Assembly: GCA_026027325.1 (NCBI GenBank)
Contig: JAMSLZ010000012.1
Span: forward strand, 1-64,000
DNA: 64,000 bases
Direction of reading: 5' to 3'
Origin: Actinomucor elegans
Lineage: Eukaryota; Mucoromycota; Mucoromycetes; Mucorales; Mucoraceae
The translations under genes and the position numbers were made by a program. Below are positions 7,319 through 34,383 of this stretch, one piece after another (position 1 is the first letter of the stretch; the number at the start of each line of letters is the position of its first letter). A model generated the notes under the pieces. The model searched no databases and was not told the origin of the DNA. It worked only from the letters and a program-made list of their open reading frames with translations.

Positions 7319-7539
7319 GATAAACATTTACAACTACTTAATATTTTTAACTTTCCTAAAAAATCAAGGCATAAATATAATGTTGCCTTTTTATCCATAA
7401 ATAAAATGTTGGTTACTTGTTCTATTTTAGAATAAAATTTATTTATATTATTATTTGTATTCAAAAAAATCTATTATTTCCTAATTTTTTTATATATTGT
7501 ACTATTTTGAACATATTTCTGTAATACTAAATGTTCTTC
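7319..7539 (-). repeat. PHc1 terminal direct repeat, left
   Basis: This 221-bp module has its own short inverted ends (AACATTT / AAATGTT) and an internal conserved core near 7369-7421. Confidence 0.9.
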
Positions 7540-7550
7540 TTATTAATTGA

Positions 7551-9027
7551 TTAATTATTTTCTATTGATTTCCAATAATTCAAAATAGTATCATGTGATG
7601 TAAAATCTTTTTCTTTTACCCATGAATTATGTTCTTTACCATACTTTTTCCATTTTACAAAATATTCATATAAGTTCTTTACTTTTTTGTGTTTAATTAT
7701 ATATTGTATTTCATATATATTTTGATCATTATTACTAGTGATATCTTCCTCCATTTGATCCATAATATCTATATTCACTTCATTTATATTTAAATTATTT
7801 AAAAATTGATTTTGTAATGATTTTATATCAACGATATTTTCTATTTTATATTGTGTTTTTAATGTTACTTCTTTATTCATTTCAATATTATTTTTATAAT
7901 AATAATCAAAATTATCATTTAGCCATTTGTTGTAATGGGCATTTTCTTCAATTCCAAATAACTCTGTAAAATATTTTATGTTCAGTAATACTATTGCTAA
8001 TTTTAGCTGTATATTATATGTCTTATTATCTGTTATTCTAATCTTATTTTGTCCACTAAATCTTTTAAAAATACTACCTAATTCTGCAAAATATTTTTCT
8101 ATTTTTGACCTTAATCCACCTAATTCTTCATTGAATTTTTTTTCATCTATGGTTAATTCAACTCCTTTATCTTTTTTTATAGGATAGCAAAAATTTTTCA
8201 AGGATATATTAAATCCAATATTACTAAATTTTCTATAAATTCTTTTACTGTGTTTTCATATAATCCATCAAAACATATACAATCTATTTCATTATAAAAC
8301 TTATTGATATTTATGTCTAAAAGCATTTTATCATCAGTATTATTTCTACAAGGTAAGGAATCAGATATATAAACACATATTCTATTAATATCTATAATAA
8401 ATTGTGTATTTAATCCATTTCTTTTTAATTTATACGAGAATAACTCTTTTTTATCTAGATTAATATCTTGATATGTTATACGATTATGGTGACCATCAAT
8501 TAGTAATGTTACATTATCTAACATCATTGGATTAAATTTCTTAGCACAAAGTAATCTCAATGTATGTGTAGAAAAACATTTTTCTAATTTATTATTTATC
8601 CATTTTTCCAATAAATCATAATTATTTATATATAATGATTGATATAATTTATAAAAACTAGTAGATGGAATATACATTTCCATTTCATTTATAGATTTTC
8701 CATTTAATAAATGTTCTAATAATATCAATACTTTATCTGCTGTTATATATGGACCTGGTAGTTTTATATTGTTACATAAATCTGTCAAAAATACAAATGG
8801 AGCAATACTTCCTAATTTAATATATATATTTTTTTAATTCTATCAATATTTGGTATACTCGTTATTTTAGATCTATGATATTTCAATTCAACTTTATATA
8901 TATATTCATTTTTCATAAATTTCCAATACCTATTGTAAATATTTCTGTATTCATTTTCAATTAATAAGTCTATATGAGTGTTCATAAACAAATAAAATGA
9001 TGTATTTTTATATAAAGAGAAATTCAA
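7551..9027 (-). pseudogene. PHc1 DDE transposase-chromodomain gene, two frameshifts
   Basis: Compared with the intact 492-codon copy at 15989-17467, this gene is broken in two homopolymer runs: a T is missing near 8225-8230 and another in the T-run near 8829-8836. This gives three open pieces (7551-8201, 8198-8788, 8812-9027). All domains remain: N-terminal region, LLIDGHHNR, CFDGLYENT, the EELGGLRSK helix and the C-terminal chromodomain. Because the only lesions are single-base differences in T-runs, sequencing or assembly error is a real alternative to true decay. Confidence 0.85.
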
Positions 9028-9075
9028 TTTTTAATATTTTCTATATTTAATAAACTTTTATTTATATATGAAAAT

Positions 9076-9444
9076 TCAATTTTTAATATTTTCTATATTT
9101 TCCAAGAACTTATGATTTCTTTTTGCATAATCTAACCATGATTTAAAATTATAAATTTCTTTAATACTAACATATCCTTTTCTTAAACACCAGGATTTGA
9201 AATATTCATTTCTAACTTTTTCGTTATCATCTAAAATTGTTTTTATCACTAAATTGGCATGGATATTTGTATTGTTTTCACCAACATCATAGAAAGGACC
9301 ACTATATAAAATTTTATCAATATTTTTTATATTTCCAACCCATTGCAGTATTTTCTTGTTTAATATTTCGGATGATTTATTCTTGACATCTTTTTTTTCA
9401 GGATTTAGAGTTAAAACCACAGCATAATAATAGATTTTTTCCAT
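9076..9444 (-). CDS. Small Rep/HUH-like protein of PHc1
   Basis: This gene lies upstream of the transposase gene on the same strand. I chose the Met at 9444 (MEKIYYYAVVLTLNP) because the homologue in PHc2 is conserved from the same point; an upstream Met at 9483 is possible. Three blocks recall rolling-circle Rep nucleases: a hydrophobic strand with VVLTLNP, then NIHANLVIKT (one His of a would-be HUH), then KGYVSIKEI...WLDYAKRN with a Tyr and Lys where the nucleophile motif would be. The second His is absent, so the assignment is tentative and the protein could instead only bind DNA. The sequence appears identical to 17516-17884. Confidence 0.55.
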   Translation of the reverse strand: MEKIYYYAVVLTLNPEKKDVKNKSSEILNKKILQWVGNIKNIDKILYSGPFYDVGENNTNIHANLVIKTILDDNEKVRNEYFKSWCLRKGYVSIKEIYNFKSWLDYAKRNHKFLENIENIKN

Positions 9445-9599
9445 TAAATATAATATTGATGTTATTTTAAAAATAATTCTCAAATATTATAGATACTTTT
9501 ATATTTTCCAAAATATCATGCCAAGAATTAGATGCCAAGGAAGTTGTTTTTAGATTTCTCAATGTGATTAAACGCAATGGAAGTCTAAAAATAGGACAA

Positions 9600-9820
9600 G
9601 ATAAACATTTACAACTACTTAATATTTTTAACTTTCCTAAAAAATCAAGGCATAAATATAATGTTGCCTTTTTATCCATAAATAAAATGTTGGTTACTTG
9701 TTCTATTTTAGAATAAAATTTATTTATATTATTATTTGTATTCAAAAAAATCTATTATTTCCTAATTTTTTTATATATTGTACTATTTTGAACATATTTC
9801 TGTAATACTAAATGTTCTTC
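9600..9820 (-). repeat. PHc1 terminal direct repeat, right
   Basis: This is the second copy of the 221-bp module in the same orientation as 7319-7539. Its inner neighbour (CAA) is not a duplication of its outer neighbour (AAT), so the two repeats and the genes between them behave as one unit. Confidence 0.9.
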
Positions 9821-11370
9821 AATTTGCTCAACAGTCACGCCCTAGTATTTATAAAAATAATACTTCTCTCTTAGCTTCTTCTTCAACAGTACCAATATTA
9901 CTTACTGATCAGAGTAATGATACTTGCGCTACTATATCTCCACAACAAACTTCTAATGACGATGAAGACCTGATTCTTCGAACATTAAAGTTTGCTGATT
10001 ATATTACACCACCTAAAAATGAACGTGATAATCTCGTATTTAAAGCACACCTTTTAGGACATTATGGTTTACAAAGCATCGAGAACCAATTACACCATGA
10101 TGGTATTCACTGGACAAACATGCGAAAAGATATTCAACGAATCTTGGGCGAATGTACTGAATGCAATAGGTTCAACATATCCAAAGTTGGTTATCACCCA
10201 CCAAAATCTGTATTGCCTGATCAACCACTTGATCATTGGTGTATGGATTTAGGTACGTTTGATGTCACCTCTTCCCGCGGCAATAACTTTATGTTAGTCA
10301 TGGTAGACTATTATTCAAGGTTTACTGTTCTTAGAGCATTACCTGATAAACATAGTACGACTATCGCTGCCGAACTTTTATCTATATTCTCGTTATTTGG
10401 CTTTCCAAAGATCTTGAATTCGGATAATGGTGCAGAGTTCACAGCTGATATTGTAGCAAAAATGATTGAGATGAGTGGCATTGATCGAAGACTTTCATTA
10501 CCATACTCTCCTACGGGTAACTCGGTAAACGAAGCATATGTCGGTTTGGCAAAACGTACAATTGTTAAGGAATTACGCGGTAAAGGCGCCGACTGGGATT
10601 ATTATTTGAATTATTGTCAATACGCTATGAATTGTAAATACGCACGGTTACATAAGTCTCGTTCTTATACAGTGTTATTCAATAGACAACCAAATGGCTT
10701 TGAAGACTACTCAAATACTAAACCTGTATTGCAACTAGAAGAAACTGACACGAAAATGATTGATGAAAAATTCAAATTTGTCAATGAAGTCGTTATACCA
10801 GCATTGTCTAAACGCATAAGAGATACGCAAGAACGTGATCACGACAGATTCGTAAAAACGCATAGGATTGTAACTAAGCAGTTTCCTGTTGGAAGTAAAG
10901 TTATGATTAAGAATGTAACACGATTAAGCAAATTAGATGCGCGTAATCTCGGTCCATTTTATATACATGGAATCACAAAGAACGGTAGCTATATCTTGAA
11001 AGATAAAGTGGGTACTCTCTTGTCTAGAGATGTACCTACATCGCATATTATATTCATCTCCTCAGATAATATATCTACTGAAGAATATCAAAAGCTTAAA
11101 GAAGATCACTTTGAAATACAAGCAGTCATTGATCATTCTGGTTCACCTGGTAATTATTTATACAGAGTCAAATGGAAAGGATATCCAAACGATGAAGATG
11201 ATACATGGGAACCTCCATCACACTTCGATTCAAAGAAACCAATTGAAATATATTGGGGACGTCGCAATGCTGATCATAAGCAATCCTCTTCCAAGAAACG
11301 TAAGGCTCCTATGACAGTCAATACACGTAAGATAGCTACTCGGAACAAACGCAGTAGAAACCAACAATAG
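9821..11370 (+). pseudogene. Ty3 pol fragment: integrase with chromodomain
   Basis: This is the downstream half of the pol split by PHc1. It has the zinc-binding HHCC domain (HLLGHYGLQ ... CTECNRF), the integrase triad regions CMDLGTFD, SDNGAEF and NSVNEAYV, and a GPY/F-like module (LGPFYIHGITKNGSYILKD). A C-terminal chromodomain follows (FEIQAVIDHSG ... YRVKWKGYPNDEDDTWEP) with a basic tail; the stop is at 11368-11370. The domain order is that of chromoviruses, which target chromatin through the chromodomain. The open frame suggests recent activity, but the element lacks gag and reverse transcriptase here. Confidence 0.9.
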
Positions 11371-11589
11371 ATCATAGACTTTTTATACACAGTCTTGTTT
11401 GTTATTCTTCTTTTCCTTCACTTTTATCCTACGGGTTTTTTACATAAGGTTTTTATCGAGGAATAACTACGATCAGTTCATTACAAGGCGAAAGGACACG
11501 CACCGAAGTATGTAACTTCCTATTAACTTATGCACATTATAGACTACACCTAGTAACAATGCAAACACTCTTAGTATAAGCAACTGTCT

Positions 11590-11601
11590 AGAAGGGGGCA
11601 A
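11590..11601 (+). other. Polypurine tract of the LTR2 Ty3 element
   Basis: The run AGAAGGGGGCAA sits directly before the TG of the 3' LTR, the usual site for plus-strand priming. Confidence 0.75.
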
Positions 11602-12200
11602 TGTTGTAAACATGACTTGTTCAGTGTCCGTCACCAATCAGGTCAATGTTCGACAATGCTTATACTCAGACGGATATCTACAATTAATATATCTTTTAAA
11701 TCTATTGTATATGTCCTATTTTTTTTTAATATATCCATATATTTTATAATTTATAACTTTTTTTCATGAATTAAAATTATTATTAAGTATAATAAACATT
11801 ATCAAGAAGGCAACTGTTCCATTTTGCATGAAAAAGCAATATTATATTTATGCTTTCTCCTAATATACGTACCAAATTTATATGAAACAAGATGTCCGTC
11901 TCAGCTTGTGCTTTGACAGCTTTGTAACGTCGGTTAAGAGATATATATGGAAATCAATGCTTAGTGCAACTAACCTTCATAAACTATCTATCACCGAATA
12001 TAAAGTCGTACTAGAATGGATTACTATAAATCCTTGTTAACTCCATGAGCGCAGTCTTTGACTAACTCAATCGTCTATAATATCAAGTTAAATCCGAACT
12101 TCAATTTTGTATAAATAGCTCATCATTTTAATGCTTTAATAAATCAATTCGTTTTATCAGTCTGGTTATTTTTACAGTCTTTATTATATTCGATATAACA
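11602..12200 (+). repeat. 3' LTR (family LTR2), split by a MITE
   Basis: It reads TGTTGTAAACATGA... to ...CGATATAACA. About 364 bp remain after removing the 232-bp MITE4 and its TSD. It contains a TATAAATAG-like box (near 12111) and AATAAA. Other copies are at 58127-58807 (plus), 45878-46240 (minus) and relics at 29645-30110. It belongs to the truncated element whose pol is at 6755-11370. Confidence 0.88.
11669..11900 (+). mobile_element. MITE4 (PHc2 terminal module) inside LTR2
   Basis: This 232-bp unit runs from GACGGATATC to GATGTCCGTC with a TCA duplication at 11666-11668 and 11901-11903. It is the same family as the terminal repeats of PHc2 (32142-34383), standing alone. Confidence 0.88.
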
Positions 12201-12562
12201 TTCTTCTCATTTATCCTAATCCTAATCTTTTCCTTATATTTGTCCTAATTTGATCCTATTTCTATGTCCTTCTCTGACCCTAACTGTCATTCTATCCTGT
12301 CATTATTCCCTCATTAATATTATCCTTATTCTTAATCTTAATTCTGTTCTTGTTTTTATCATTGCTCTTAATTCATCTCTATTCTTTTCTTTATTTTATT
12401 TTATTCCTATCTTATCTTAATTTTAGTCCTAACTTTACTATTATTCGTCTCACTGTGCATATCTCTAATCCTCATCTTAATTTTAAATTTTTTCCTAATT
12501 CTGTCCTCATATTATCTATATTATTCTTCCTATTTCTATTTAATGTTAACGTAATTTTATTC
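12201..12562 (+). repeat. Degenerate telomere-like CCTAAT tract
   Basis: Loose repeats of TCCTAATCCTAATC type with T-rich interruptions. No gene is seen. Confidence 0.55.
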
Positions 12563-13421: not shown

Positions 13422-13707
13422 TGTGGTGAAATCCACATATAACATTCTACATTATATTAAAAAGACGGGATTCATTTAATAACTATCCATCAAAAGAGGG
13501 AGTTTTGAATCACCGCTGAAAATACAATTAATGAAGAATGAACATAGATTAAAAAGACCTTTGATTGTTACTAAGAGACCATTTCTTTGGAAGTATAAAT
13601 ACAAGAGATACAAGCTAGATAGAAAAAACTTAACTCACTTTGAATCAATAAAACCCCATAAAACGGTTCTAACTGATTCACTCGCTTTTTATTCAATTTT
13701 TACCGCA
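13422..13707 (+). repeat. 5' LTR (family LTR4)
   Basis: 286 bp, TGTGGTGAAATCC... to ...TTTTTACCGCA. It includes a TATAAATAC-type box near 13595 and a T-rich end. The leader begins with T-runs and has no TGG primer site. Confidence 0.9.
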
Positions 13708-13739
13708 TTTTTTTCAGTTGTACCTATAAAAATCTTACT

Positions 13740-14667: not shown

Positions 14668-14676
14668 GGACACGGT

Positions 14677-14960: not shown

Positions 14961-14999
14961 TATTGGAACTACGATTCACTAGTTTCAATCGAGTGAATT

Positions 15000-15756: not shown

Positions 15757-15977
15757 GATAAACATTTACAACTACTTAATATTTTTAACTTTCCTAAAAA
15801 ATCAAGGCATAAATATAATGTTGCCTTTTTATCCATAAATAAAATGTTGGTTACTTGTTCTATTTTAGAATAAAATTTATTTATATTATTATTTGTATTC
15901 AAAAAAATCTATTATTTCCTAATTTTTTTATATATTGTACTATTTTGAACATATTTCTGTAATACTAAATGTTCTTC
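15757..15977 (-). repeat. PHc1 terminal direct repeat, left
   Basis: 221-bp module ending AAATGTTCTTC, with the conserved core at about 15807-15859. Confidence 0.9.
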
Positions 15978-15988
15978 TTATTAATTGA

Positions 15989-17467
15989 TTAATTATTTTC
16001 TATTGATTTCCAATAATTCAAAATAGTATCATGTGATGTAAAATCTTTTTCTTTTACCCATGAATTATGTTCTTTACCATACTTTTTCCATTTTACAAAA
16101 TATTCATATAAGTTCTTTACTTTTTTGTGTTTAATTATATATTGTATTTCATATATATTTTGATCATTATTACTAGTGATATCTTCCTCCATTTGATCCA
16201 TAATATCTATATTCACTTCATTTATATTTAAATTATTTAAAAATTGATTTTGTAATGATTTTATATCAACGATATTTTCTATTTTATATTGTGTTTTTAA
16301 TGTTACTTCTTTATTCATTTCAATATTATTTTTATAATAATAATCAAAATTATCATTTAGCCATTTGTTGTAATGGGCATTTTCTTCAATTCCAAATAAC
16401 TCTGTAAAATATTTTATGTTCAGTAATACTATTGCTAATTTTAGCTGTATATTATATGTCTTATTATCTGTTATTCTAATCTTATTTTGTCCACTAAATC
16501 TTTTAAAAATACTACCTAATTCTGCAAAATATTTTTCTATTTTTGACCTTAATCCACCTAATTCTTCATTGAATTTTTTTTCATCTATGGTTAATTCAAC
16601 TCCTTTATCTTTTTTTATAGGATAGCAAAAATTTTTCAAGGATATATTAAATCCAATATTACTAAATTTTTCTATAAATTCTTTTACTGTGTTTTCATAT
16701 AATCCATCAAAACATATACAATCTATTTCATTATAAAACTTATTGATATTTATGTCTAAAAGCATTTTATCATCAGTATTATTTCTACAAGGTAAGGAAT
16801 CAGATATATAAACACATATTCTATTAATATCTATAATAAATTGTGTATTTAATCCATTTCTTTTTAATTTATACGAGAATAACTCTTTTTTATCTAGATT
16901 AATATCTTGATATGTTATACGATTATGGTGACCATCAATTAGTAATGTTACATTATCTAACATCATTGGATTAAATTTCTTAGCACAAAGTAATCTCAAT
17001 GTATGTGTAGAAAAACATTTTTCTAATTTATTATTTATCCATTTTTCCAATAAATCATAATTATTTATATATAATGATTGATATAATTTATAAAAACTAG
17101 TAGATGGAATATACATTTCCATTTCATTTATAGATTTTCCATTTAATAAATGTTCTAATAATATCAATACTTTATCTGCTGTTATATATGGACCTGGTAG
17201 TTTTATATTGTTACATAAATCTGTCAAAAATACAAATGGAGCAATACTTCCTAATTTAATATATATATTTTTTTTAATTCTATCAATATTTGGTATACTC
17301 GTTATTTTAGATCTATGATATTTCAATTCAACTTTATATATATATTCATTTTTCATAAATTTCCAATACCTATTGTAAATATTTCTGTATTCATTTTCAA
17401 TTAATAAGTCTATATGAGTGTTCATAAACAAATAAAATGATGTATTTTTATATAAAGAGAAATTCAA
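15989..17467 (-). CDS. PHc1 transposase: DDE domain fused to a chromodomain
   Basis: This is an intact 492-codon gene. An N-terminal region (NEYRNIYNRYWKFMK, then KYHRSKI) is shared with PHc2 and PHc3. A predicted RNase H-fold catalytic core resembles the DDE_Tnp_4 (PIF/Harbinger) family: the first Asp in LLIDGHHNR near residue 178, the second in CFDGLYENT near 254, and the acidic helix EELGGLRSKIEKYF near 300-312. Residues 439-490 form a chromodomain (YEIQYIIKHKK, EYFVKWKKYG, NSWV). The 3-bp target duplications fit this superfamily. The chromodomain may steer insertion to silent chromatin, consistent with all copies lying in other transposons. It is AT-rich and Lys/Asn/Ile-rich. The gene lies downstream of the Rep-like gene, separated by about 50 bp. 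Confidence 0.88.
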   Translation of the reverse strand: MNFSLYKNTSFYLFMNTHIDLLIENEYRNIYNRYWKFMKNEYIYKVELKYHRSKITSIPNIDRIKKNIYIKLGSIAPFVFLTDLCNNIKLPGPYITADKVLILLEHLLNGKSINEMEMYIPSTSFYKLYQSLYINNYDLLEKWINNKLEKCFSTHTLRLLCAKKFNPMMLDNVTLLIDGHHNRITYQDINLDKKELFSYKLKRNGLNTQFIIDINRICVYISDSLPCRNNTDDKMLLDININKFYNEIDCICFDGLYENTVKEFIEKFSNIGFNISLKNFCYPIKKDKGVELTIDEKKFNEELGGLRSKIEKYFAELGSIFKRFSGQNKIRITDNKTYNIQLKLAIVLLNIKYFTELFGIEENAHYNKWLNDNFDYYYKNNIEMNKEVTLKTQYKIENIVDIKSLQNQFLNNLNINEVNIDIMDQMEEDITSNNDQNIYEIQYIIKHKKVKNLYEYFVKWKKYGKEHNSWVKEKDFTSHDTILNYWKSIENN

Positions 17468-17515
17468 TTTTTAATATTTTCTATATTTAATAAACTTTTA
17501 TTTATATATGAAAAT

Positions 17516-17884
17516 TCAATTTTTAATATTTTCTATATTTTCCAAGAACTTATGATTTCTTTTTGCATAATCTAACCATGATTTAAAATTATAAATTTCT
17601 TTAATACTAACATATCCTTTTCTTAAACACCAGGATTTGAAATATTCATTTCTAACTTTTTCGTTATCATCTAAAATTGTTTTTATCACTAAATTGGCAT
17701 GGATATTTGTATTGTTTTCACCAACATCATAGAAAGGACCACTATATAAAATTTTATCAATATTTTTTATATTTCCAACCCATTGCAGTATTTTCTTGTT
17801 TAATATTTCGGATGATTTATTCTTGACATCTTTTTTTTCAGGATTTAGAGTTAAAACCACAGCATAATAATAGATTTTTTCCAT
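17516..17884 (-). CDS. Small Rep/HUH-like protein of PHc1
   Basis: About 122 codons from the Met chosen by conservation with PHc2 (an in-frame Met at 17923 would add 13). Blocks in order: YYYAVVLTLNP, YSGPFYDVGENNTNIHANL, and KGYVSIKEI followed by WLDYAKRN. The spacing of the hydrophobic strand, the His motif and the Tyr-Lys motif recalls Rep nucleases of single-stranded replicons, but only one His of the HUH pair is seen. It ends just upstream of the transposase gene on the same strand, suggesting co-expression. Harbinger elements usually carry a Myb-like second protein; this one does not look like Myb. Confidence 0.55.
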   Translation of the reverse strand: MEKIYYYAVVLTLNPEKKDVKNKSSEILNKKILQWVGNIKNIDKILYSGPFYDVGENNTNIHANLVIKTILDDNEKVRNEYFKSWCLRKGYVSIKEIYNFKSWLDYAKRNHKFLENIENIKN

Positions 17885-18039
17885 TAAATATAATATTGAT
17901 GTTATTTTAAAAATAATTCTCAAATATTATAGATACTTTTATATTTTCCAAAATATCATGCCAAGAATTAGATGCCAAGGAAGTTGTTTTTAGATTTCTC
18001 AATGTGATTAAACGCAATGGAAGTCTAAAAATAGGACAA

Positions 18040-18260
18040 GATAAACATTTACAACTACTTAATATTTTTAACTTTCCTAAAAAATCAAGGCATAAATATA
18101 ATGTTGCCTTTTTATCCATAAATAAAATGTTGGTTACTTGTTCTATTTTAGAATAAAATTTATTTATATTATTATTTGTATTCAAAAAAATCTATTATTT
18201 CCTAATTTTTTTATATATTGTACTATTTTGAACATATTTCTGTAATACTAAATGTTCCTC
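18040..18260 (-). repeat. PHc1 terminal direct repeat, right
   Basis: 221-bp module in direct orientation to 15757-15977. The outer end CCTC differs by one base from CTTC in other copies. Confidence 0.9.
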
Positions 18261-19533
18261 ATAAGCTTCATCCTCTGCATCATCACCTTCAGCTTCACTT
18301 TCGTTCTCCTGTTGGAAAGCAACATCTTCTATATCTCTGACCCTACGGCGAGCCAACCAACGGTCAAATCTGGCAGCTTCTCGCTCCGCACGGCGCTCAT
18401 TCTCCTCCATGGTGTTACCGTCTTCGCCTCGAGTTATTAATTCGGGTATAAATTCCGTAACGAGGTTGGCCGGATTGTTTGGGTCGAAGGAGACCTCTCT
18501 CAATGCACGGTGTATAGCTGCTTCCAAATCATGCTTGTTAACATCGCGCCATAAGTACTCCATTAGTTTTCCAGGGCAATCTTCAGGGTTTCGGTTCCTA
18601 GGCTTGATGAACTCCTTTAAAGGACGCCAAAAGCTTTCTATCATATTGGTATGAAGCCTACCAGAAGACGGAATACCAGTTATCCCACGGTTGCCACGTA
18701 CTTGGTCTGTAGTTGCAAAGTTTAGAGAATGGTTCACGACTTGATGGGCACGGAAGTGGAACCCTCCTTCATCGTAATCGACAGTGTTTTCCAACACATT
18801 TCCCTCGCTATCCAGGCGTGAACGAGGGTGCAAGCCGCTGTAGGCAGCCCATCCATCCGATCGGATTATGGTACCCCTTGCACAGTACCGATAAATAATC
18901 GGTAGAAGGGTGGCAGCGGAACGATTAGGCACGGTGCAAAAGAATTTGCGTCCAGCTTTGTACTTGGGGCGTAATTCGTCAATGCCCTCATCATTGTTCA
19001 CGTACCTGTATGATTGCCCTGTCTCCAGGCACTCAACCATACCGAAAACCCATACACCTTCAACTCTATGTCCGCGGTGGTTTTTTCTCTTTCCAAACTT
19101 TGATTCATCAATCTGAATGTGATGGCAATTGCGATCCGAACCAAGAAGATAGTCACCGTGATATCTGTGATAGTCTGAGAACATTAATACTTGCGCATCT
19201 CGGAATAACTGGGCCAAGTTGCCTCTTGACATGGAGTGGGTGTTCCAGATTGTTGCTGGCTGAACCCCGCAAAAGTAACTTTTAATGGCCGAATACGTGT
19301 AATTCGTCAAAGTTTTACGACGGTAAAACAACGAATTCCTTGTCACCGCCTCAATGTGATGTCCGGAATGACCACTTCCAGCAACATCTAAGCTACCAGT
19401 AAGACTGCCTACACATCTATAATAATATGGTTGGTTTCTGTTGGCACGTGTATGTTCTTGAAGTTCTAAAGAGCAACCATTGTAACCACAAATCAAGTCA
19501 CTACGGTCAAATGCGCCATTGGAGAGCAAGTGG

Positions 19534-19588
19534 CTAAAAGTTGTGCTTGGTTAATTATTGTATTAAAATATCATATAAGAAATATTAC
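19534..19588 (-). other. 55-nt spliceosomal intron in Merlin1 transposase
   Basis: On the minus strand it begins GTAATATTTC and ends CTTTTAG. Removing it joins ...ADASL(R/S) to SHLLSNGAFDRSDL without a stop, and a TTAAC branch-like motif precedes the acceptor. An alternative acceptor (AACCAAG) would introduce a stop. Confidence 0.75.
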
Positions 19589-19859
19589 CTCAATGAAGCA
19601 TCAGCATTTGCGATGAGTCGAGAATTTTCGATTATATCACCGTAAGCAGGACGACGGGAACGGAAGGGTGCACGACCATTTTGAGTGGAAAGGGGAGTAG
19701 CTTGAATGCGAGAGCTTGCTACGGTAGCTTGAATACGATTACTGCGGCGCTGAGGCTCAATTCTAGCGGTATATTGGCTCATGTTAAATCCCAAAGCAAA
19801 CTATAACGATTGAGAAAGCGCAATTAAGAAAAGTTATTGAAATGAAAACCAAATGTCGA

Positions 19860-20540
19860 GATTGCGGTTCAATTGCATAAAAATGTCGAGATTGCGTTAC
19901 AATTGGTAATAAATGTCAAGATTATGTTGAAATTGAGAATAAATGTCAAGATTGCGTTAAAATTTTGAATAAATGTCGAGATTATATTGCAAATGTGTGC
20001 AAATGTCAAGATTGCGTTAAAATTGGGAATAAATGTTGAGATTATATTGCAAATGTGTGCAAATGTCAAGATTGCGTTAAAATTGAAAATAAATGTCGAG
20101 ATTATATTGCAAATGTGTACAAATGTCAAGATTGCGTTAAAATTGAAAATAAATGTCGAGATTATATTGCAAATGTGTACAAATGTCAAGATTGCGTTAA
20201 AATTGTGAGTAAATGTCGAGATTATATTGCAAATGTGTACAAATGTCAAGATTGCGTTAAAATTGTGAGTAAATGTCGAGATTATATTGCAAATGTGTGC
20301 AAATGTCAAGATTGCGTTAAAATTGAAAATAAATGTCGAGATTATATTGCAAATGTGTACAAATGTCAAGAATGCGTTAAAATTGTGAATAAATGTCAAG
20401 ATTATATTGCAAATGTGTACAAATGTCAAGATTGCGTTAAAATTGAGAATAAATGTCGAGATTATATTGCAAATGTGTGCAAACGTCGAGATTGCGTTGA
20501 AATTGTGAATAGATTGTCAAGATTATGTTGCAATTTTTCA
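19860..20540 (+). repeat. 60-bp tandem array upstream of Merlin1 transposase
   Basis: About 11 units of 60 bp, each made of two diverged 30-bp halves (AAATGTCGAGATTATATTGC and AAATGTCAAGATTGCGTTAA types). As 60 is divisible by 3, the array stays open in frames of both strands, which gives apparent proteins such as repeated KCQDCVKIENKCRDYIANV. I regard these as by-products. The array may hold multiple transposase-binding sites. Confidence 0.85.
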
Positions 20541-22029
20541 AAATTGTTGAGATCACAAGGAAACATAAATAGTTTCATTGTTGCATGTGTGTCAAACGAA
20601 GCGAAATGAATCCAAATTTGTCGTAAAATAAAATCGTGAAACAAAAGCACACATAAATGATGTATATTTCATAAATATAACAAAGTAAACAGAGCAATCG
20701 TAATCAATAGAAAAAAATAAAAAGGCAAAGCTAATTAGCATTTTTGTTTTTATTCTAAACGAAATCTACTTACATTAAAAAAGTTTGCAAAGGGGAAAAG
20801 GGAGGTTTCATTCTCACAGCCCCCCTGAAAATGTTTTTTTCGAAGCAAGTCACGTTATTTTAGAGGAGAAATTTTGTTTTACCCTTAACGCTTCAAGAAA
20901 TGTGAATATATAAACGATTTTATTTTTAATAAATTACTCAAAATACAACTTGTTAGATAGAAAAAAGAAATTGTTTAATATATGGAACAATATAAAATAT
21001 ACTCATTATAATTTATTGGAAGTTAATGAAAGATTGTAAGCTTGTTTGAAAAATTGGAGCATTGAAAAAGAAACAGTATAACTTTCTTAATATAAAAGTC
21101 GTTGCTATTTTATATTTTAAACAAAATCATTTATCATAACCGAGACTCATTGTTACAAAATAAAGAGAAACAATGCAAACATTTTATAACATTCCTTTTT
21201 TTCTGTTTTAATTTAGCAATGGAACTTTTGTTTGCCCAATTATATACTAAAGAAGACTAAAAAGAATACTTTTTGGAACTGTGCTTTTTTAATAATACAA
21301 AAAAAAAAAGAAACTGTGCTTTAATACCCAGGATATATGCAAAGATGAAGATTTTATAACTATGCCTATCTAAGTGCGGTGAAGAGAATATTTAAGAAGG
21401 TGTTATGTTATAGGCGTATATTCCAGATATATATATCCATCTGAGACATGAATATTAAACATATAAACGCATAAGTACTTCCGTCAGGCGCATATTTATA
21501 GCTGAAAAATATAAAAAATAGTCAATAGTGACAAGCATAAATATAATGCTGCCTCTTTATGCATAAACATAAAACTGCTTTCTTGAGTAATTTATCAATT
21601 TATATATAATTTATTATTTTTAAATTAAATATAAGCATATAAAATAGTTATAAATATATAAATTAATATATTCATCTAAAGATAAGATTAATAATGAATA
21701 AGTTATTATTCATATAGTAGTCTCTATTATTTAACATAGGCCACTTATAAAAAATTGAATTTTGGATTTTACTTCACATCATAGAAGAACAATTCAAATT
21801 AAAAGATGTATCTATTATTTTATTTTTATTTTTTTCACTTCTAATTTTATATATTAATATAATTATAATTATACTTCGGATTTAAAATACCCCTAGTTTC
21901 GTACCAGCCACATATGTACGAGAACCTTTCTCTAAGAGAAAGAACCATAAAGAGTCGCGGTGCAAGTTTTTTTGCAACTTACACCTTAAAAACTAATACA
22001 AAATTAAAAAAATATATACAATAATGGAG
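20541..22029. other. Merlin1 interior without genes
   Basis: AT-rich. It contains a relic of the shared MITE core at about 21534-21586 (AGCATAAATATAATGCTGCC...CTGCTTTCTTG) and a MITE2-like hairpin (GCAAGTT ... AACTTAC) at about 21963-21987. No coding region is supported. Confidence 0.6.
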
Positions 22030-28796: not shown

Positions 28797-29009
28797 ATGC
28801 GAGCACAAGTGAATAACTGTTAGCCACAATCCAACAAGTAAAAATACAACTTCGAAACAAAAGTTAGTATGAACCAATTGAAGTCAAGTTGAATAAACTT
28901 TTTAACCAAGGTGTAGTAGATTTTTTCTATGTTTTCCTATATTTTTACCACAGTAACATCAATGAATTCACCGCCTGTACAAAACTTGTCGATATTTTTC
29001 AGTCCTTCA
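28797..29009. other. Degenerate LTR5-like spacer
   Basis: It shows eroded LTR5 landmarks (AAGTTGAATAAACT, TTTTTACCACAG). No gene is seen. Confidence 0.4.
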
Positions 29010-29345
29010 TTACCAGGTTAGTGTTCTGTTGATGCTAAATAGGCTACTAACGCATTGGTACACCGTCATGTATACTATCCAATTCCTCGGTCCGCAAGCA
29101 AACCCATGGGTAGCATTTTCTACCAACAATGTAGTAATGCTTCTGTTGTCGTATTCCATAATTAGTTTTTTTTTTTTTAATAATCCAAGCAATGTTATCT
29201 TCAGATAGGGTGTTTCTTCTGCCGGTTGCCTTATTGCTACTACCAACGTCGTTTGTAGCATTCATCCTTGGATCCGAGCCATGGTGCTACCAAAAGTAAG
29301 CTTTTGCCATTTTGCAGGTCCAACTCTTCAAGGCTAATCAAAATA
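29010..29345 (-). pseudogene. Unknown dispersed gene fragment (SEDN family)
   Basis: On the minus strand from 29265 the frame reads MNATNDVGSSNKATGRRNTL then SEDNIAWIIKK, and a second frame continues after a T-run. A related start with the same residues (MNTTKDAGGSNNAAGR... SEDN) is found at 50193-50485, and eroded copies at 37535-37788 and 56100-56350. Conserved residues across diverged copies suggest a former coding exon. I do not recognise the protein. Confidence 0.45.
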
Positions 29346-29493
29346 CGCGATTTTAATTTAATAAGCATGTTATATTTTAGGCCAATATTTTTGAGAAACA
29401 TTTTAATTCACAAGACTTTTTTACAAAATAAAAAAAGAAAAAAATGTTAAAAGTATATTATTTAATACAATTAATACTATTTTCATAAATACA

Positions 29494-29636
29494 AGTATAT
29501 AACCTTCAGTCACAATTCAACGAGTATAAATACAAGCTAGAAGAACTAGTTAGAAAGAATTAATAAATTTAAGTTGAATGAACTATAACCAAGTTATAAT
29601 CGACTTACTACCTGCTTTTATCTTAATTTTATCGCA
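29494..29636 (+). repeat. LTR5 fragment (3' part)
   Basis: It matches the second half of the LTR5 at 29713-30016, from CCTTCAGTCACAATTC to TTTATCGCA, and abuts an LTR2 relic. Confidence 0.7.
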
Positions 29637-29644
29637 CGACTTAT

Positions 29645-30110
29645 CTTCGGTGATAGATAGTTTATGGAGGTTAGTTGCACTAGGCATTGATTTACATATA
29701 TATCTTTTAACCTGTGGTGAAATAACCACATAGTTGAAGTACAGACAGACTAGAGGCCTGTGCGCCCTAGCTGTAGCACATACATACTAAAGCATCATTG
29801 ATTACCTTATACAGCGATACAGTCCTTAAACAGAGATACGTCCTTCTTATACTTTTTATATGAACACAAGTAAATAACCTTCAGTCACAATTCAACGAGT
29901 ATAAATACAAGCTAGAAAAACTAGTTAGAAAGAATTAATCACATTTAAGTTGAATAAACTATAACCAAGTTATAATCGATTTATTACTACCTGCTTTTAT
30001 TTTTAATTTTACCGCATAACCGACGTTACAAAGCTGTCAAAGCACAAGCTGAGTATAAGCATCTTGTCGAGCATTGACCTGATTGGTGACGGACACTGAG
30101 CAAGCCATAA
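29645..30110 (-). repeat. LTR2 relic, split by solo LTR5
   Basis: Pieces 29645-29712 and 30022-30110 together follow the LTR2 order in reverse. LTR5 sits between them. Confidence 0.75.
29713..30016 (+). repeat. Solo LTR5
   Basis: 304 bp, TGTGGTGAAATAACC... to ...TTTTACCGCA, with TSD TAACC (29708-29712, 30017-30021). The ends are shared with LTR4, so the two families are related. Confidence 0.88.
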
Positions 30111-30180
30111 TTCTAGCAGCTCCTTGTATTATTACTGCTGGTAATGTTTATGCCAAGTAATGATGAATGGATCTAGAAGC

Positions 30181-30488
30181 TGTTGTGTTTGCACAATGAA
30201 ATAATAAAGAAGACCAAAGGAAATATTTTTTAGACTGCGCTTTATTATCAAAGATAAATATAAAGATGAAAACCCTATAACTATGTCTAAACTAAACCTA
30301 TTTATATTAATCGTCTATCTAAGTGTGGTGAAGAGGATTTAAGAAGATGTTATGTTATAGGTCTATGTTCTAGATATATATTCATCTGAGACATGAATCT
30401 TAGACATATCAACTCATAAGTACTTCCGTAGAAATGAGATCGATAATGAATAAGTTATTATTCATACAATAGTCTCTATTCTATAACA
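30181..30488 (-). repeat. Solo LTR3, minus orientation
   Basis: About 308 bp, TGTTGTGTTTGCAC... to ...TCTATTCTATAACA, mildly diverged from the LTRs of the element at 39478-44877. No matching TSD. Confidence 0.85.
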
Positions 30489-30898
30489 CTTCTGCAGCTA
30501 CTGTAAACGAAAAAAGGGTTTCAATGTTTTATAAATTAATCTTTTTCTCTTCATATAGCTGTCTAAAATAAAACTATGCAGTTGATGTTAGTATCAATAG
30601 AGAGCTAAAACTTTGGTATTTTTTTCTATAGGTTTTTCTTCATTCTGAACTGTATTTAAAACTAGGGAGTTAAGGAGAAGTTGAGAAATTTTGATTTTTT
30701 GATGTTTCAAAATATGTCGTTACTTAACATCGCATAAACTTATTTTAAATTGAGCTATCGAAGAAATTTAAAACATGGTCCAAAACAATGGGACATTCTT
30801 TATGAATAGGAAAATTAAAATAAAGAATAAAAGAAGCTGGCTCTTCCTGTCCAAATTGAATATTTTCACCACCTTTTTTTTATAAAAAAATTAACATC
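30489..30898 (+). other. 5' part of a Tc1/mariner relic
   Basis: It begins CTTCTGCAGCTACTGTAAAC followed by GAAAAAAGGGTTTCAATG. The same motif occurs inverted near 63250-63284, so this is probably the Tc1 terminal repeat and leader. Confidence 0.55.
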
Positions 30899-31191
30899 AT
30901 GGTTCGTTCTATTACTAAAGATAAGCAAGACACTCTCAAGTCACTGTTGTCAAGAAACATTCCATACTCAAGAATTCAGAAACAACTAGCAGATACTTCT
31001 CTAGCCACTTTATTAGTAGATATAAAGATAAATTTTTTCCTACTACGAAGCCTGCTAGCACTGGAAGGCCATGTTCAGTAAGCAATACAACAAAGAAATA
31101 CATTCAAAATAAAATGAAAACCGTTCAATTCAAATCACCACAAGATATAAAGGCTTTTATCTTATTTCAGTTGGAATTAATATGGCAATGA
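30899..31191 (+). pseudogene. Tc1/mariner transposase, N-terminal DNA-binding region
   Basis: The ATG at 30899 opens MVRSITKDKQDTLKSLLSRN then IPYSRIQKQLADTSLATL, which reads like the first helix-turn-helix of Tc1-type transposases. After a frameshift near 31015 the text continues YKDKFFPTTKPASTGRPCSV, with the GRP-like linker of Tc1 proteins, then NTTKKYIQNKMKTVQFKSPQ. The catalytic domain is missing here; a catalytic fragment of the same superfamily lies at 61003-62848. It is non-functional. Confidence 0.65.
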
Positions 31192-31796
31192 GGAGCATTC
31201 AGTTAATGCTTCATTCTATGAGTCACGTTTATTAGTATATTGTAGTTGTAAGTTACAAAAATAACTTACTACGTGCTTTTTTAATTGATTTTTTGGGTGA
31301 TTACCAAACGAGGTCTCAGATTTAATTTATACTAATAATACATAATATTTTATTTTACACTTCATAGGGAAATGCTTAACATTTTTTGTTTTTTAAGCTT
31401 TTAATATGACCAATAAATATATCAAAAAGTATTTAAATAATTACTATTACTAATTTCTAAAATAATTCTTTTTTTCATATTTTTATCATAAATTCTACTT
31501 TTTCCTTTATTTTCAATATTTTATTTTGTTTTTCTATTAAAACTATTTAATTTTATATATCAAGTAATAGATAATAAAAATATTAATTAAAAATATATAA
31601 TAACAATAAAATTATATTTAAAATGTTTCTCATATGATGAATATAATGAAAATTTATTAGAAATAGATATTGTGAAGGAAGAAATAAAAAACTTAGAAAA
31701 TAAAAATTTAATTTAGATAATAATTATCAGCATGATATAAATGTTAAAATTAATGGAATATATATTGAAAAATTTAATTTAGAAAATATATTTAAA

Positions 31797-32093
31797 TTAT
31801 AATTTAAGTTTTTTCATGATGGGTGCGATTTCATCAAGTATCATATTATTCTTATTATCTAATGTTTTTCTTTTTATACCTTTGTTTTTATCTTTATTAT
31901 ATGTCTTAAATTCATATACTTTTCTTAATCTTTTATTTGAACCATTTTTTTTCATGTAGATTTCATAACACCCATCTTTTTGCTTTATTTTGTATTCTGC
32001 TAAATCATATTTTTTCATATCTTTTATAATTATACTTCGTTTAATATTGTATTTATATTTATCATCTACAATAATATTAAATATTTCATCCAT
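31797..32093 (-). CDS. Merlin2 98-aa lysine-rich protein, unknown function
   Basis: MDEIFNIIVDDKYKYNIKRS... is a basic protein (many Lys, Asn, Ile) ending in a lysine-rich tail (APIMKKLKL). It is identical by eye in copy 2 (48271-48567), while the neighbouring intergenic DNA has small indels. It lies downstream of the transposase on the same strand. A related start with IKRSFVIRNM follows the transposase of Merlin3 at 57629, so the two-gene order is conserved. No known domain is recognised; a DNA-binding accessory role is only a guess. Confidence 0.6.
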   Translation of the reverse strand: MDEIFNIIVDDKYKYNIKRSIIIKDMKKYDLAEYKIKQKDGCYEIYMKKNGSNKRLRKVYEFKTYNKDKNKGIKRKTLDNKNNMILDEIAPIMKKLKL

Positions 32094-32141
32094 TTCTTTT
32101 TTATATTATTACTTTTTCAATTTTTTTTATTTTTTTATAAT

Positions 32142-32373
32142 GAGGGATATCTTTTTTTATATGAATTTAATATATATATTAGTAGAAAACATAAATATAA
32201 TGTTGTTTTTTCATGCATAATGGAACAGTTGCCTTCTTGATAATGTTTATTATACAGAATAATCATTTTAATTTATAAAAAAGGTTATAAAGATATAAAA
32301 ACTATGGATATATTAAAAAGTTTAAATATATATAGAAAAGATAAAAATGATGTAATGTCTGTATATATCCGTC
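32142..32373 (-). repeat. PHc2 terminal direct repeat, left (MITE4 module)
   Basis: 232 bp from GAGGGATATC to ATATATCCGTC, with its own inverted ends and the conserved core near 32187-32240. Confidence 0.9.
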
Positions 32374-32449
32374 TACTATAATAATAATAACAGATTATTA
32401 CTAATTTTTTTCTCTAATATACAAAAATTGAATTTTCTAACTAATAAAA

Positions 32450-33622
32450 ATGGAAACTATTAATATTAAATATAATTTACTAAGAGAATATCAAACTTTA
32501 ACAAATGAATATTGGAAATTTTTAAATTATGGTTTGCCAATTATTAATCAAAAAAAAATATCATACAAAAAGGCCAATTCCTATTAATAAAATCAAGGAA
32601 ATTAAAAAGGTTTTATTTGAGAAGTTGGGAATTATACCAGTTTATTTCTTTTTAGTTACATTGTTTGGTGATGGAAACTATAGAGGATATAGTTTATATG
32701 TGGAGCCAATAATAAATAATTCAGAATTAAATGATTTTAACTTTGTATATCTTATTAGAAAAGATAAAAATATAAATTTAGATGATGTTGAATTAAATTA
32801 TAATGATCAATTTGGTAGTTTTAGATCAAAAATGGAGAAAGTTTTTTCTGATATTGGATTCATATTTCAGAGATTAAATAATAAAAAATCATTTTTAACA
32901 TCTAATATAAATATATATAATATACAATTAAAAATTGCATCTGTACTTCTAAATATTAAAAGATATGTAAAATGGACATGTTTATGTAACATTATAAATC
33001 ATGTGATTTATAATTGTGTAACCAAACATTAATTGTTTTAAATAGAAAATAATAAAAATATAAAACACTTTTTAAAAAGTGTTCTAAATTGTTTTAAGAA
33101 GAAAATATAAATTATTAAAAAATGTTGACATGAATGGCAACTTTTTAATTTTTATTATTTTCAAATGACAAACAATTTGATAATATTTTTATATTTTCAG
33201 AAAGACAAACAATTAAATAATATAGAACATTACAGTTTTCAATCAAATTGGATGAATGATAACTTTGATTTCGAATATAAAAATAATTTAACTAGTAATA
33301 TAGATAGCTATAGTGCACCTCCAAAATTAAATGATAGAATAAATAATTTAGATAAAATGAAATTGTTACAACATCAATTTTTAGGATTACAATTATCAAA
33401 TGTTATAAATGATTTAATAATAATATGGATTTAGAGATAGTTGTAAATGATGATGAAAATATTTATGAGATTGATATTATTTTAGATCATAAAGGATTAG
33501 TAGTTGAAGATAGTTTTTATCTCATAAAATGGAAAAATTACGATAATAGTGAAAATTCTTGGATACATTATACTAAATTTAATACTTTTGAATGTATTAA
33601 TGCTTATTGGAACAGTAAATAA
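32450..33622 (+). pseudogene. PHc2 DDE-chromodomain transposase, internally deleted
   Basis: METINIKYNLLREYQTLTNE then YWKFLNYG aligns with the N-terminus of PHc1. A frameshift near 32560 leads to PINKIKEIKKVLFEKLGIIP and VYFFLVTLF. About 200 codons with the two catalytic Asp regions are missing. FGSFRSKMEKVFSDIGF matches the third-acidic helix of PHc1. A possible 234-nt GT-AG intron (32967-33200) or insertion separates LLNIKRY from KDKQLNNIEHY. A frameshift near 33425 precedes the chromodomain (IYEIDIILDHKG, FYLIKWKNYD, ENSWI). It cannot be catalytic and would depend on another copy. Confidence 0.75.
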
Positions 33623-33681
33623 GTAATATTTTCGGAATAAATATCAATGTTGAAAAAAATATTACAATATTAAATACAACT

Positions 33682-33984
33682 TTATTTAAAATCCCATATT
33701 TCTTTAATACTAATATAACCTTTTCTGAGAAACCATGATTTGAAATATGTTTTTCTAATTTCTTCTGTACTTTTCAATGTTGTTTTTATAACTAAATTTG
33801 CATGTACATTTGTATTATTATCACAAAAATCATAAAATGGACCACTATATAAAATATCTTCAATATTCTTAATGTTTTTAATCCAAAATAATATTTTCTT
33901 GCTTAAAATTTCAAATTTTTTTCCATTAACGTCTTTTTTTTCAGGATCGAGTGTCAATACAACAGCGTAATAATGATATGTCAT
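33682..33984 (-). CDS. Small Rep/HUH-like protein of PHc2
   Basis: MTYHYYAVVLTLDPEKKDV... is clearly homologous to the PHc1 small protein through YSGPFYD, NTNVHANLVIKT and FLRKGYISIKEIWDFK, where it stops. It therefore lacks the WLDYAKRN segment that could hold a nucleophilic Tyr. An upstream in-frame Met at 34035 is not conserved. Here the gene faces the transposase gene (convergent), unlike PHc1. Its retention beside a wrecked transposase hints at an independent role, or simply at later decay. Confidence 0.55.
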   Translation of the reverse strand: MTYHYYAVVLTLDPEKKDVNGKKFEILSKKILFWIKNIKNIEDILYSGPFYDFCDNNTNVHANLVIKTTLKSTEEIRKTYFKSWFLRKGYISIKEIWDFK

Positions 33985-34151
33985 TGTAAAAAGATTAAAT
34001 GTTTTTTTTTGTAAATATATAATAGAATATGTCAATATTTATATTTTTTTTACAAGATATTTTTAGAAATACCAAGAAATTTATTTTTGTAATGTTCATG
34101 TGATTATTTTTAATTAATATAACAACTTTGTATTCCCTATGCCCTATAGAA

Positions 34152-34383
34152 GAGGGATATCTTTTTTTATATGAATTTAATATATATATTAGTAGAAAAC
34201 ATAAATATAATGTTGTTTTTTCATGCATAATGGAACAGTTGCCTTCTTGATAATGTTTATTATACAGAATAATCATTTTAATTTATAAAAAAGGTTATAA
34301 AGATATAAAAACTATGGATATATTAAAAAGTTTAAATATATATAGAAAAGATAAAAATGATGTAATGTCTGTATATATCCGTC
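34152..34383 (-). repeat. PHc2 terminal direct repeat, right (MITE4 module)
   Basis: 232 bp, the same orientation as 32142-32373 and nearly identical. Confidence 0.9.

What the first reader, a model, noticed from the sequence alone, without database searches (positions are those of the whole stretch)
7319..34383. Harbinger-like transposons whose ends are direct repeats of complete MITE modules
PHc1 (7319-9820, 15757-18260) and PHc2 (32142-34383) end in 221- and 232-bp repeats in direct, not inverted, orientation. Each repeat has its own inverted ends and also occurs alone with a 3-bp TSD (57763-57983 ATT; 11669-11900 TCA; 46533-46761 ACA). The whole units also make 3-bp TSDs (AAT, ATA, AAT), and the PHc2 target is preserved empty at 48612. 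Cut-and-paste elements normally have one inverted repeat pair. Here the unit looks like a composite of MITE, genes and MITE, like a bacterial composite transposon or an LTR element, and the solo modules may form by recombination or by separate mobilisation.
Basis: seen in the sequence. Interest (0 to 1): 0.88.

Follow-up and report, generated by a model that had tools for sequence, protein, structure and literature searches.

The report
Harbinger transposons ending in complete MITEs
A fungal family of jumping genes is built like a sandwich: the same small complete mobile element sits at both ends in the same direction, the whole sandwich appears to jump as one piece, and the end pieces also occur alone or shared between units in a row, an arrangement already described for a different transposon group in animals.

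Summary
Confirmed, and a genome-wide rule. End patterns find 199 modules of three related families (PHc1-3): 72 module-genes-module adjacencies at near-fixed spacing, two dimers, and many lone modules. Of 21 composites with both flanks in hand, 19 have an outer 3-bp TSD and 0 a TSD across an inner edge; 11 of 21 have a full-length paralogous empty site. So they landed as units. All 41 left and 41 right PHc1 interior ends found still carry a module. PHc2 and PHc3 modules differ by 18%, but left and right modules of one element, where compared, by 0-2 bases, so the ends are kept alike. The transposase is DDE_Tnp_4 (PIF/Harbinger-type) with an HP1-like chromodomain. PHc1 has a second small protein, ferredoxin-like in models, with invariant HxN and Tyr: possibly an HUH nuclease, unproven; the PHc2 version stops before that Tyr. 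The architecture is known from animal KolobokP (PMC9587614). New here: another superfamily, a fungus, a different second protein, and evidence of concerted evolution. The 55195-57521 pair is a chance pair and serves as negative control.

The parts
7319..9820 (-). PHc1 composite, copy 1 (genes on minus strand); TSD AAT; inserted in a Ty3/gypsy-type pol gene; transposase frame broken relative to copy 2
7319..7539 (+). PHc1 left module (221 bp, own imperfect TIRs GATAAACATTTA/GAAGAACATTTA)
9600..9820 (+). PHc1 right module, identical to the left
15757..18260 (-). PHc1 composite, copy 2, open reading frames; TSD ATA; inserted at the edge of an ISXO2-like (DDE_Tnp_IS1595) transposase frame (18195-19550)
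15989..17470 (-). 493-aa stop-to-stop frame: DDE_Tnp_4 transposase with C-terminal chromodomain
17516..17890 (-). ORF2, 124 aa: small protein with ferredoxin-like model, invariant H64-x-N66 and Y108; candidate HUH-like nuclease
3443..4408 (+). truncated third PHc1 copy (left module 4188-4408 plus about 745 bp of interior), reverse orientation
32142..34383 (+). PHc2 composite; TSD AAT; transposase gene lacks a middle part relative to PHc3; empty site at 48612
32142..32373 (+). PHc2 left module (232 bp)
34152..34383 (+). PHc2 right module, identical to the left
33682..34035 (-). PHc2 ORF2 homologue (117-aa frame), 70% identical to PHc1 ORF2 over 99 aa, opposite strand to the transposase; stops before the conserved Tyr
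57763..57983 (+). solo PHc1 module, TSD ATT, two substitutions
46533..46761 (-). solo PHc2 module, TSD ACA (same insertion also at C18:13438)
11669..11900 (-). solo PHc3 module, TSD TCA; full-length empty site at C8:391523-391759
50898..51298 (-). solo 401-bp module of a further family (F49, transposase 49% identical), TSD ATA
48612..48911 (+). right side of the unoccupied paralogue of the PHc2 insertion site
55200..55421 (+). solo PHc4 module (shares the module core), TSD ATT
57291..57512 (+). solo PHc4 module inserted in an ISXO2-like (Merlin-type) transposase gene, TSD AGT; with 55200-55421 a chance pair (negative control)
47213..47425 (-). solo PHc4 module, TSD ATG

Best explanation
PHc1, PHc2 and PHc3 are PIF/Harbinger-type DNA transposons with a composite-like body: a complete 221-232-bp MITE (module M) at each end in direct orientation around an interior (INT) that encodes the transposase. 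SHOWN: M-INT-M is the usual state of an interior; it sits between one 3-bp TSD and has clean paralogous empty sites, so it is inserted as one unit from the outermost left TIR to the outermost right TIR. SHOWN: M also exists alone with its own TSD, and M-INT-M-INT-M dimers exist inside a single TSD. INFERRED: the chromodomain DDE transposase uses the outer TIRs; any left TIR can be paired with any downstream right TIR, so M, M-INT-M or longer arrays are all substrates. INFERRED: homologous exchange between the direct modules (unequal crossover, or loss of an M-INT circle) gives solos and dimers, and sub-unit transposition from dimers keeps both ends alike over long times. INFERRED and weaker: ORF2, where intact, is a nicking nuclease that stimulates such exchange, playing the part proposed for the homing nuclease of KolobokP.
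For: 37, 16 and 19 adjacencies at near-constant spacing in PHc1, PHc2, PHc3. Outer TSD in 11 of 12 PHc1 and 8 of 9 PHc2 pairs; inner-edge TSD in 0 of 21. One PHc3 composite read: TSD AAG, modules 232/232 identical. Dimers with one TSD: PHc1 C22:9970-14753, ACT; PHc2 C22:744089-748338, ATA. Full-length empty sites for 11 of 21 composites (10 independent insertions). PHc2 and PHc3 share 7-8 bp of interior next to both modules; modules 82%, interior pieces 75-81%, while L and R of one element differ by 0-2 bp in the pairs compared. Transposase: DDE_Tnp_4 plus Chromo in 19 of 19 scanned (window and 18 of the 69 found). All 41 left and 41 right interior ends found carry a module. Of 38 PHc1 interior stretches in hand 24 equal the reference and none has more than 2 differences (loci had been picked as best matches).
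Against: No direct sight of movement, circle or exchange. No locus was found where one paralogue has a composite and another a solo at the same TSD (only flanks in hand compared). Two composites (C8:46935, C21:3593187) and one solo (C7:31136) lack an exact 3-bp TSD. L and R are not always identical: 7 of 16 PHc2 adjacencies have modules differing by 1-2 bp in length and 2 of 12 PHc1 pairs differ. The concerted-evolution argument rests mainly on one family pair, and the shared junction stretches are short. No intact transposase was read in PHc2 (middle missing) or PHc3 (frame split in two), so PHc1 alone is shown with open frames. Many 1-bp differences could be assembly errors. TSDs are not of the TWA/TTA type that I recall for PIF/Harbinger.
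Confidence: 0.8

Rival explanations
1. Two MITEs landed by chance on both sides of the same genes, and the rest is drift.
For: Modules do occur alone, and chance pairs exist: 55200/57291 direct and C18:13438/14491 inverted.
Against: Those chance pairs each show private TSDs for each module, whereas 0 of 21 composites do. Near-fixed spacing in 72 adjacencies and empty sites for 11 of 21.
Confidence: 0.02
2. Replicative, circle-based element: ORF2 (HUH-like) nicks a module, an M-INT circle is copied by rolling circle, and the transposase inserts M-INT-M cut from the concatemer. The direct ends are then terminal redundancy, as in LTR elements.
For: ORF2 model and invariant HxN/Tyr; named rows of the viral structure library include several replication initiators; dimers exist; L and R nearly identical.
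Against: ORF2 not shown to be a nuclease; not found in the PHc3 copy read; cut short before the Tyr in the 17 PHc2-type matches listed. Only 1 dimer among 36 PHc1 loci with an M-INT-M. Foldseek against PDB gave no hit at E<=0.001 with either model.
Confidence: 0.18
3. IS26-like targeted joining: a translocatable circle (M-INT) joins next to an existing solo M, so composites are rebuilt at solos.
For: Solos and dimers coexist; the KolobokP authors propose the same as an option.
Against: No solo/composite pair at one TSD was seen among the loci in hand; empty sites fit de novo insertion but do not exclude a solo stage.
Confidence: 0.15
4. Assembly artefact or segmental duplication multiplying a few odd loci.
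For: Some flanks are shared (C5:24143 with C9:581672; C22:700367 with C22:707745; C12:3681537 with C12:3695200).
Against: Most TSDs and flanks in hand differ between copies, and several contigs hold unoccupied paralogues.
Confidence: 0.03

Closest known systems
KolobokP (Kojima & Bao 2022, Mob DNA 13:24, PMC9587614; parts 1-4 of 6 read)
   Same: LTDR-INT-LTDR with each LTDR carrying its own TIRs; TSDs; solo LTDRs; (LTDR-INT)n-LTDR multimers in one TSD; transposase plus a small second protein, on opposite strands as in PHc2. Termini 5'-RR...YY-3' as given for Kolobok also fit PHc modules (GA...TC).
   Different: Kolobok transposase and His-Me nuclease, reported from animals, LTDRs near 450 or 660 bp, interiors lacking one LTDR frequent in one family. 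Here DDE_Tnp_4 plus chromodomain, a fungus, 221-402-bp modules, a second protein of another kind, and no PHc1 interior end without a module among the 82 found.
PIF/Harbinger superfamily and Tourist-like MITEs (features recalled)
   Same: DDE_Tnp_4 domain, 3-bp TSD, short TIRs, solo modules like MITEs.
   Different: Four TIRs per unit, direct modules, chromodomain fused to the transposase, no Myb-like partner found.
Bacterial composite and IS26-type pseudo-compound transposons (recalled; also discussed in PMC9587614)
   Same: Two complete mobile modules flank cargo in direct orientation; the unit moves as a whole.
   Different: The modules carry no transposase gene; it is in the middle.
LTR retrotransposons (recalled)
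   Same: Direct terminal repeats, solos, shared-repeat tandems.
   Different: No reverse transcriptase seen in the interior; modules have TIRs; DDE transposase of another kind.

Membership tests
PIF/Harbinger | DDE_Tnp_4-type transposase | tested here: met
   PF13359 above cut-off in the window protein and matched in 19 of 19 scanned (window and 18 of 69 relatives found)
PIF/Harbinger | 3-bp target site duplication | tested here: met
   19 of 21 composites, 8 of 9 PHc1/PHc2 solos in hand
PIF/Harbinger | TWA/TTA target preference (recalled) | tested here: not met
   TSDs AAT, ATA, AAG, TCT, ATT, ACT, AAA, CAA, TTG, ATG, TTA, TAA
PIF/Harbinger | Myb-like second protein (recalled) | tested here: not met
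   no Pfam match above cut-off for ORF2 in 10 of 10 and 6 of 6 proteins scanned; model ferredoxin-like
PIF/Harbinger | one pair of inverted ends | tested here: not met
   two complete modules, four TIRs
KolobokP | direct terminal modules with own TIRs, solos and multimers in one TSD | tested here: met
KolobokP | termini 5'-RR and YY-3' | tested here: met
   PHc1-4 modules start GA and end TC, which speaks against a simple separation from Kolobok by ends alone
KolobokP | Kolobok-type transposase with C/DxxH between second D and last E | tested here: not met
   no His between D255 and E312 of the window transposase, triad assigned by me; DDE_Tnp_4. No Kolobok sequence was aligned.
KolobokP | His-Me/His-Cys box nuclease with eight conserved H/C | tested here: not met
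   invariant residues of 12 aligned ORF2 (window and 11 of 16 found) hold one His and no Cys
KolobokP | LTDR about 450 or 660 bp | tested here: not met
   221, 232, 232, 401-402 bp
HUH endonuclease (for ORF2) | His-hydrophobic-His (or variant) on a strand and a Tyr on a helix of a ferredoxin-like fold (recalled) | tested here: inconclusive
LTR retrotransposon | reverse transcriptase and integrase between the repeats | tested here: not met
   interior frames scanned give only DDE_Tnp_4 and Chromo above cut-off; ORF2 has none
MITE (solo modules) | short, non-coding, TIRs, TSD, multicopy | tested here: met

The most novel reading that the evidence does not exclude
The PHc elements are two-enzyme transposons. 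A DDE transposase handles integration, and an HUH-like nuclease nicks the conserved core of the modules to drive rolling-circle copying or directed exchange, so that the direct end modules are terminal redundancy rebuilt each cycle, as in LTR elements but without RNA. The same principle then arose independently in animal Kolobok (homing nuclease) and fungal Harbinger (HUH nuclease). PHc2, whose ORF2 is cut short, would be served in trans.
Probability: 0.22. Interest if true: 0.87.

Novelty: new variant of a known kind. Interest (0 to 1): 0.66.

Why it matters
It shows that the MITE-genes-MITE body is not a peculiarity of one animal transposon lineage but occurs with another transposase superfamily and in another kingdom, with a different accessory protein. 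The PHc2/PHc3 comparison indicates that the two ends are held alike over long divergence, so a DDE element here behaves like an LTR element. The PHc1 interiors in hand are nearly identical (recent activity), so how solos, dimers and end homogenisation arise could be tested directly. It also offers a source for MITEs: end modules of their own autonomous parent.

Tried and rejected
Chance co-insertion: rejected by inner-edge TSDs 0 of 21, spacing and empty sites.

A fourth composite at 55195-57521 with an ISXO2-like (Merlin-type) transposase: I believed this at first (direct 231-bp repeats, 97%), then rejected it. Each module has its own TSD and one is inserted inside the transposase gene. PHc4 has 6 end-pattern matches genome-wide and no other pair.

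An inverted PHc2 composite at C18:13438-14491: rejected, two solos with TSDs ACA and TAA.

The 35983/38210 direct repeats: 86% alike over 442 columns, no frame over 86 aa in between; I saw no module ends and left it.

F34 (transposase 34% identical): its 282-bp end modules have 67-bp perfect TIRs. I noted them as inverted (note 5); that note is wrong or at least unproven. A later check shows the window's N-side arm and two C-side loci with the module in the same orientation relative to the transposase, with the adjoining about 140 bp inverted. No complete copy was read, so I draw no firm conclusion.

ORF2 identity by sequence: no Pfam match above cut-off, only weak PHROGs matches, the best E 0.006 and one of them, E 0.17, named homing endonuclease, no PDB sequence relative. 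The viral library gave 2 unnamed hits at E<=0.001; among the named rows of its top 50 (E 0.006-0.06) are several replication proteins beside unrelated phage and adenovirus proteins. The better model (pLDDT 84.9) lists HUH nucleases (class recalled) among many equally ranked unrelated folds. The viral library was not searched with the better model.

Relatives in viral contigs: 23 pattern matches, none confirmed. Literature searches in the held PMC library: (one search failed). Judged from titles and abstract beginnings, none listed a Harbinger or fungal element of this architecture; only PMC9587614 was opened (parts 1-4 of 6). Subscription papers and Repbase reports are not covered.

Changes made on checking this report: the statement that left equals right was corrected for 7 of 16 PHc2 adjacencies of unequal length; the stop in PHc2 ORF2 was added and the novel case lowered from 0.25 to 0.22 and the circle rival from 0.20 to 0.18 for it; the RR/YY termini were added.


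Full report
WHERE IT IS. The window is bases 1-64000 of contig C4 of a 36.5-Mb, 27-contig assembly. The only transposase relatives with an organism name in the listing are Mucor flavus proteins, so the host is most likely a Mucor-like fungus; the species was not determined.

THE OBSERVATION. PHc1 modules are 221 bp with imperfect TIRs (GATAAACATTTA/GAAGAACATTTA); PHc2 modules are 232 bp. Two corrections: 11669-11900 belongs to a third family, PHc3 (82% to PHc2), and a truncated PHc1 copy lies at 3443-4408.

A GENOME-WIDE RULE. Patterns of one module end (up to 3 mismatches) found 96 PHc1, 42 PHc2 and 61 PHc3 modules, with 0 matches to the reversed control pattern in each. PHc1 modules were classified by interior left ends, ORF2 position and spacing: 37 module-INT-module adjacencies (two of them share a middle module), 15 modules with no interior on either side, and 4 left plus 4 right modules whose partner is not at normal distance. 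Two of 43 ORF2 matches had no right module at normal distance; one (C13) is half of a split match whose other half has one, the other (C21:329516) lies in a disrupted copy. By spacing alone PHc2 gives 16 adjacencies (one dimer) and 11 unpaired modules, and PHc3 gives 19 adjacencies and 23 unpaired modules. Of the PHc2 unpaired, C21:668049 and C21:678573 are the two ends of one interrupted composite with TSD CAA. Some PHc3 unpaired modules are probably also interrupted pairs, for example C3:143384/151661 and C21:668506/676784, both about 8.28 kb apart (from coordinates).

THE UNIT MOVES AS ONE. Sequence was held for both outer flanks of 21 composites: 12 PHc1 (two of them, C5:24143 and C9:581672, are the same insertion in a duplicated region) and 9 PHc2. 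These loci were the best-scoring ones, not a random draw. Outer 3-bp TSDs match in 11 of 12 and 8 of 9; random trimers in these loci match with probability 0.026. Joined flanks (one TSD copy) find an unoccupied paralogue over the full 237 bp at 98% or more for 7 of 12 PHc1 and 4 of 9 PHc2 composites among the loci in hand (rows covering part of the query not counted). The one PHc3 composite read in full (C1:72492-74830) has TSD AAG and identical 232-bp modules.

NEGATIVE CONTROLS FOUND ON THE WAY. Window 55200-55421 and 57291-57512 look like a composite but are two PHc4 singles with TSDs ATT and AGT, the second inside an ISXO2-like transposase gene (the name Merlin is recalled). C18:13438 and 14491 look like an inverted composite but are two PHc2 solos, TSDs ACA and TAA. 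Chance pairs therefore look different from the real composites.

SOLOS AND DIMERS. Among modules in hand without interior, 4 of 5 PHc1 and 4 of 4 PHc2 have a 3-bp TSD. The PHc1 triple at C22:9970-14753 has ACT on both sides (left flank, right flank). The PHc2 triple at C22:744089-748338 has ATA on both sides (its middle module is known only). All 41 PHc1 interior left ends and all 41 right ends found (up to 3 mismatches) abut a module. If solos were mostly cut out of composites, interiors lacking a module should exist, as in KolobokP-4N1; none was found. This favours recombination between modules for PHc1 solos, unless excision gaps are repaired. PHc4, with 6 singles and no composite found, favours movement of single modules in trans, or loss of its composites.

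THE ENDS ARE KEPT ALIKE. PHc2 and PHc3 share 8 bp of interior next to the left module and 7 bp next to the right and a homologous transposase; their modules are 82% identical and interior pieces 75-81%. Within an element the modules are nearly the same: PHc3 232/232 in the one copy read; PHc2 identical in the 9 pairs in hand, while by the lengths only 9 of 16 adjacencies have modules of equal length and 7 differ by 1-2 bp; PHc1 identical in 10 of 12, the others differing by one base. If the common ancestor of PHc2 and PHc3 was already a composite, as the shared junctions suggest, both ends changed together after the split. Young copies add little: of 38 PHc1 interior stretches in hand (several partial, reference included, picked as best matches) 24 equal the reference and none has more than two differences, one of these being a 162-bp insertion. 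A further family, F49 (transposase 49% identical), has 401-402-bp modules on the left side at C5:192789 and the right side at C21:3604667 in the same direction, but no single copy was read at both ends and its composite TSD is untested.

PROTEINS. The PHc1 transposase frame (493 aa) has DDE_Tnp_4 and a C-terminal chromodomain; so have all 19 scanned (the window's and 18 of 69 relatives found), and the chromodomain is closest to HP1 among solved structures. PHc2 lacks the middle of the transposase gene relative to PHc3, and the PHc3 copy read has its frame split in two, so only PHc1 is shown with open frames; PHc2 is probably driven in trans (inference). ORF2 (124 aa) lies upstream of the transposase on the same strand in PHc1 and on the opposite strand in PHc2; none was found in the PHc3 copy read. 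The PHc2 version stops before the conserved Tyr: all 17 PHc2-type matches listed contain a stop. Twelve aligned proteins (window and 11 of 16 found) down to 34% identity keep H64, N66, W87, W105 and Y108. The second AlphaFold model (pLDDT 84.9, pTM 0.77) is ferredoxin-like with H64 on the third strand and Y108 in the last helix. Among its structural neighbours are the SIRV1 ORF119 protein, circovirus Rep domains and the ISHp608 and ISDra2 transposases (HUH class recalled), but ribosomal protein S6 and ACT domains score as well. An HUH-like nuclease is a fair reading, not a result; I put it near 0.5.

THE MODULE CORE. Modules of PHc1-4 share about 50 bp near the left end, with CATAAATATAATGTTG or a near variant; in PHc1 a near repeat follows 26 bp later. 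The 16-mer (one mismatch allowed) has 326 matches genome-wide against 9 for the reversed control (100 places listed). A protein-binding site or a promoter are both possible.

MECHANISM. Shown: unit insertion, solos, dimers, ends alike within and different between families. Inferred: the transposase pairs any left with any right TIR; module exchange makes solos and dimers; sub-unit transposition from dimers equalises the ends; ORF2 may stimulate exchange. KolobokP was given a similar scheme with a homing nuclease.

NOVELTY. The architecture is known from KolobokP. New, as far as the searches named in Tried and rejected show, are its presence in a PIF/Harbinger-type lineage, in a fungus, with a chromodomain transposase and a second protein of another kind, and the interfamily evidence that the ends evolve in concert.

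Noticed in passing
61335-62809: Fold-back element: 726-bp arms (100%), 23-nt spacer, TSD ATA; arms carry a frame resembling the N-terminal part of a chromodomain Harbinger transposase (F34, by position and eye) and a 282-bp end module with 67-bp perfect TIRs.
   Followed up: partly
C8:49876-50157, C3:98770-99051, C12:3673977 (G000): F34 end modules: two C-side loci carry the module in the orientation of the window's N-side arm while the adjoining about 140 bp is inverted; at C12 the module seems flipped (judged on 3-4 bp only).
   Followed up: partly
7319 and 18260: Both window PHc1 copies sit in other transposons: copy 1 splits a Ty3/gypsy-type pol gene (RNase H domains before it, integrase core and chromodomain after it), copy 2 borders an ISXO2-like transposase frame.
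   Followed up: partly
19731-20630: Array of 30-bp tandem repeats open on both strands (215 and 189 aa), Cys-rich on the plus strand.
   Followed up: no
37792-37903 (also C11:512642, C21:3596733): 112 bp resembling the left half of the PHc2 module (76%), same break in the three copies in hand, inside a longer repeat of about 1 kb: possibly a further module family.
   Followed up: no
L094 (C22:765350-765950): Divergent ORF2 (42%) just upstream of what looks like a transposase start, so at least one more ORF2-bearing family probably exists.
   Followed up: partly
G000, PHc1 modules: 46 of 89 PHc1 modules on contigs of known length lie within 100 kb of a contig end; others cluster inside contigs. 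This would fit heterochromatin targeting by the HP1-like chromodomain (inference, no control made).
   Followed up: no
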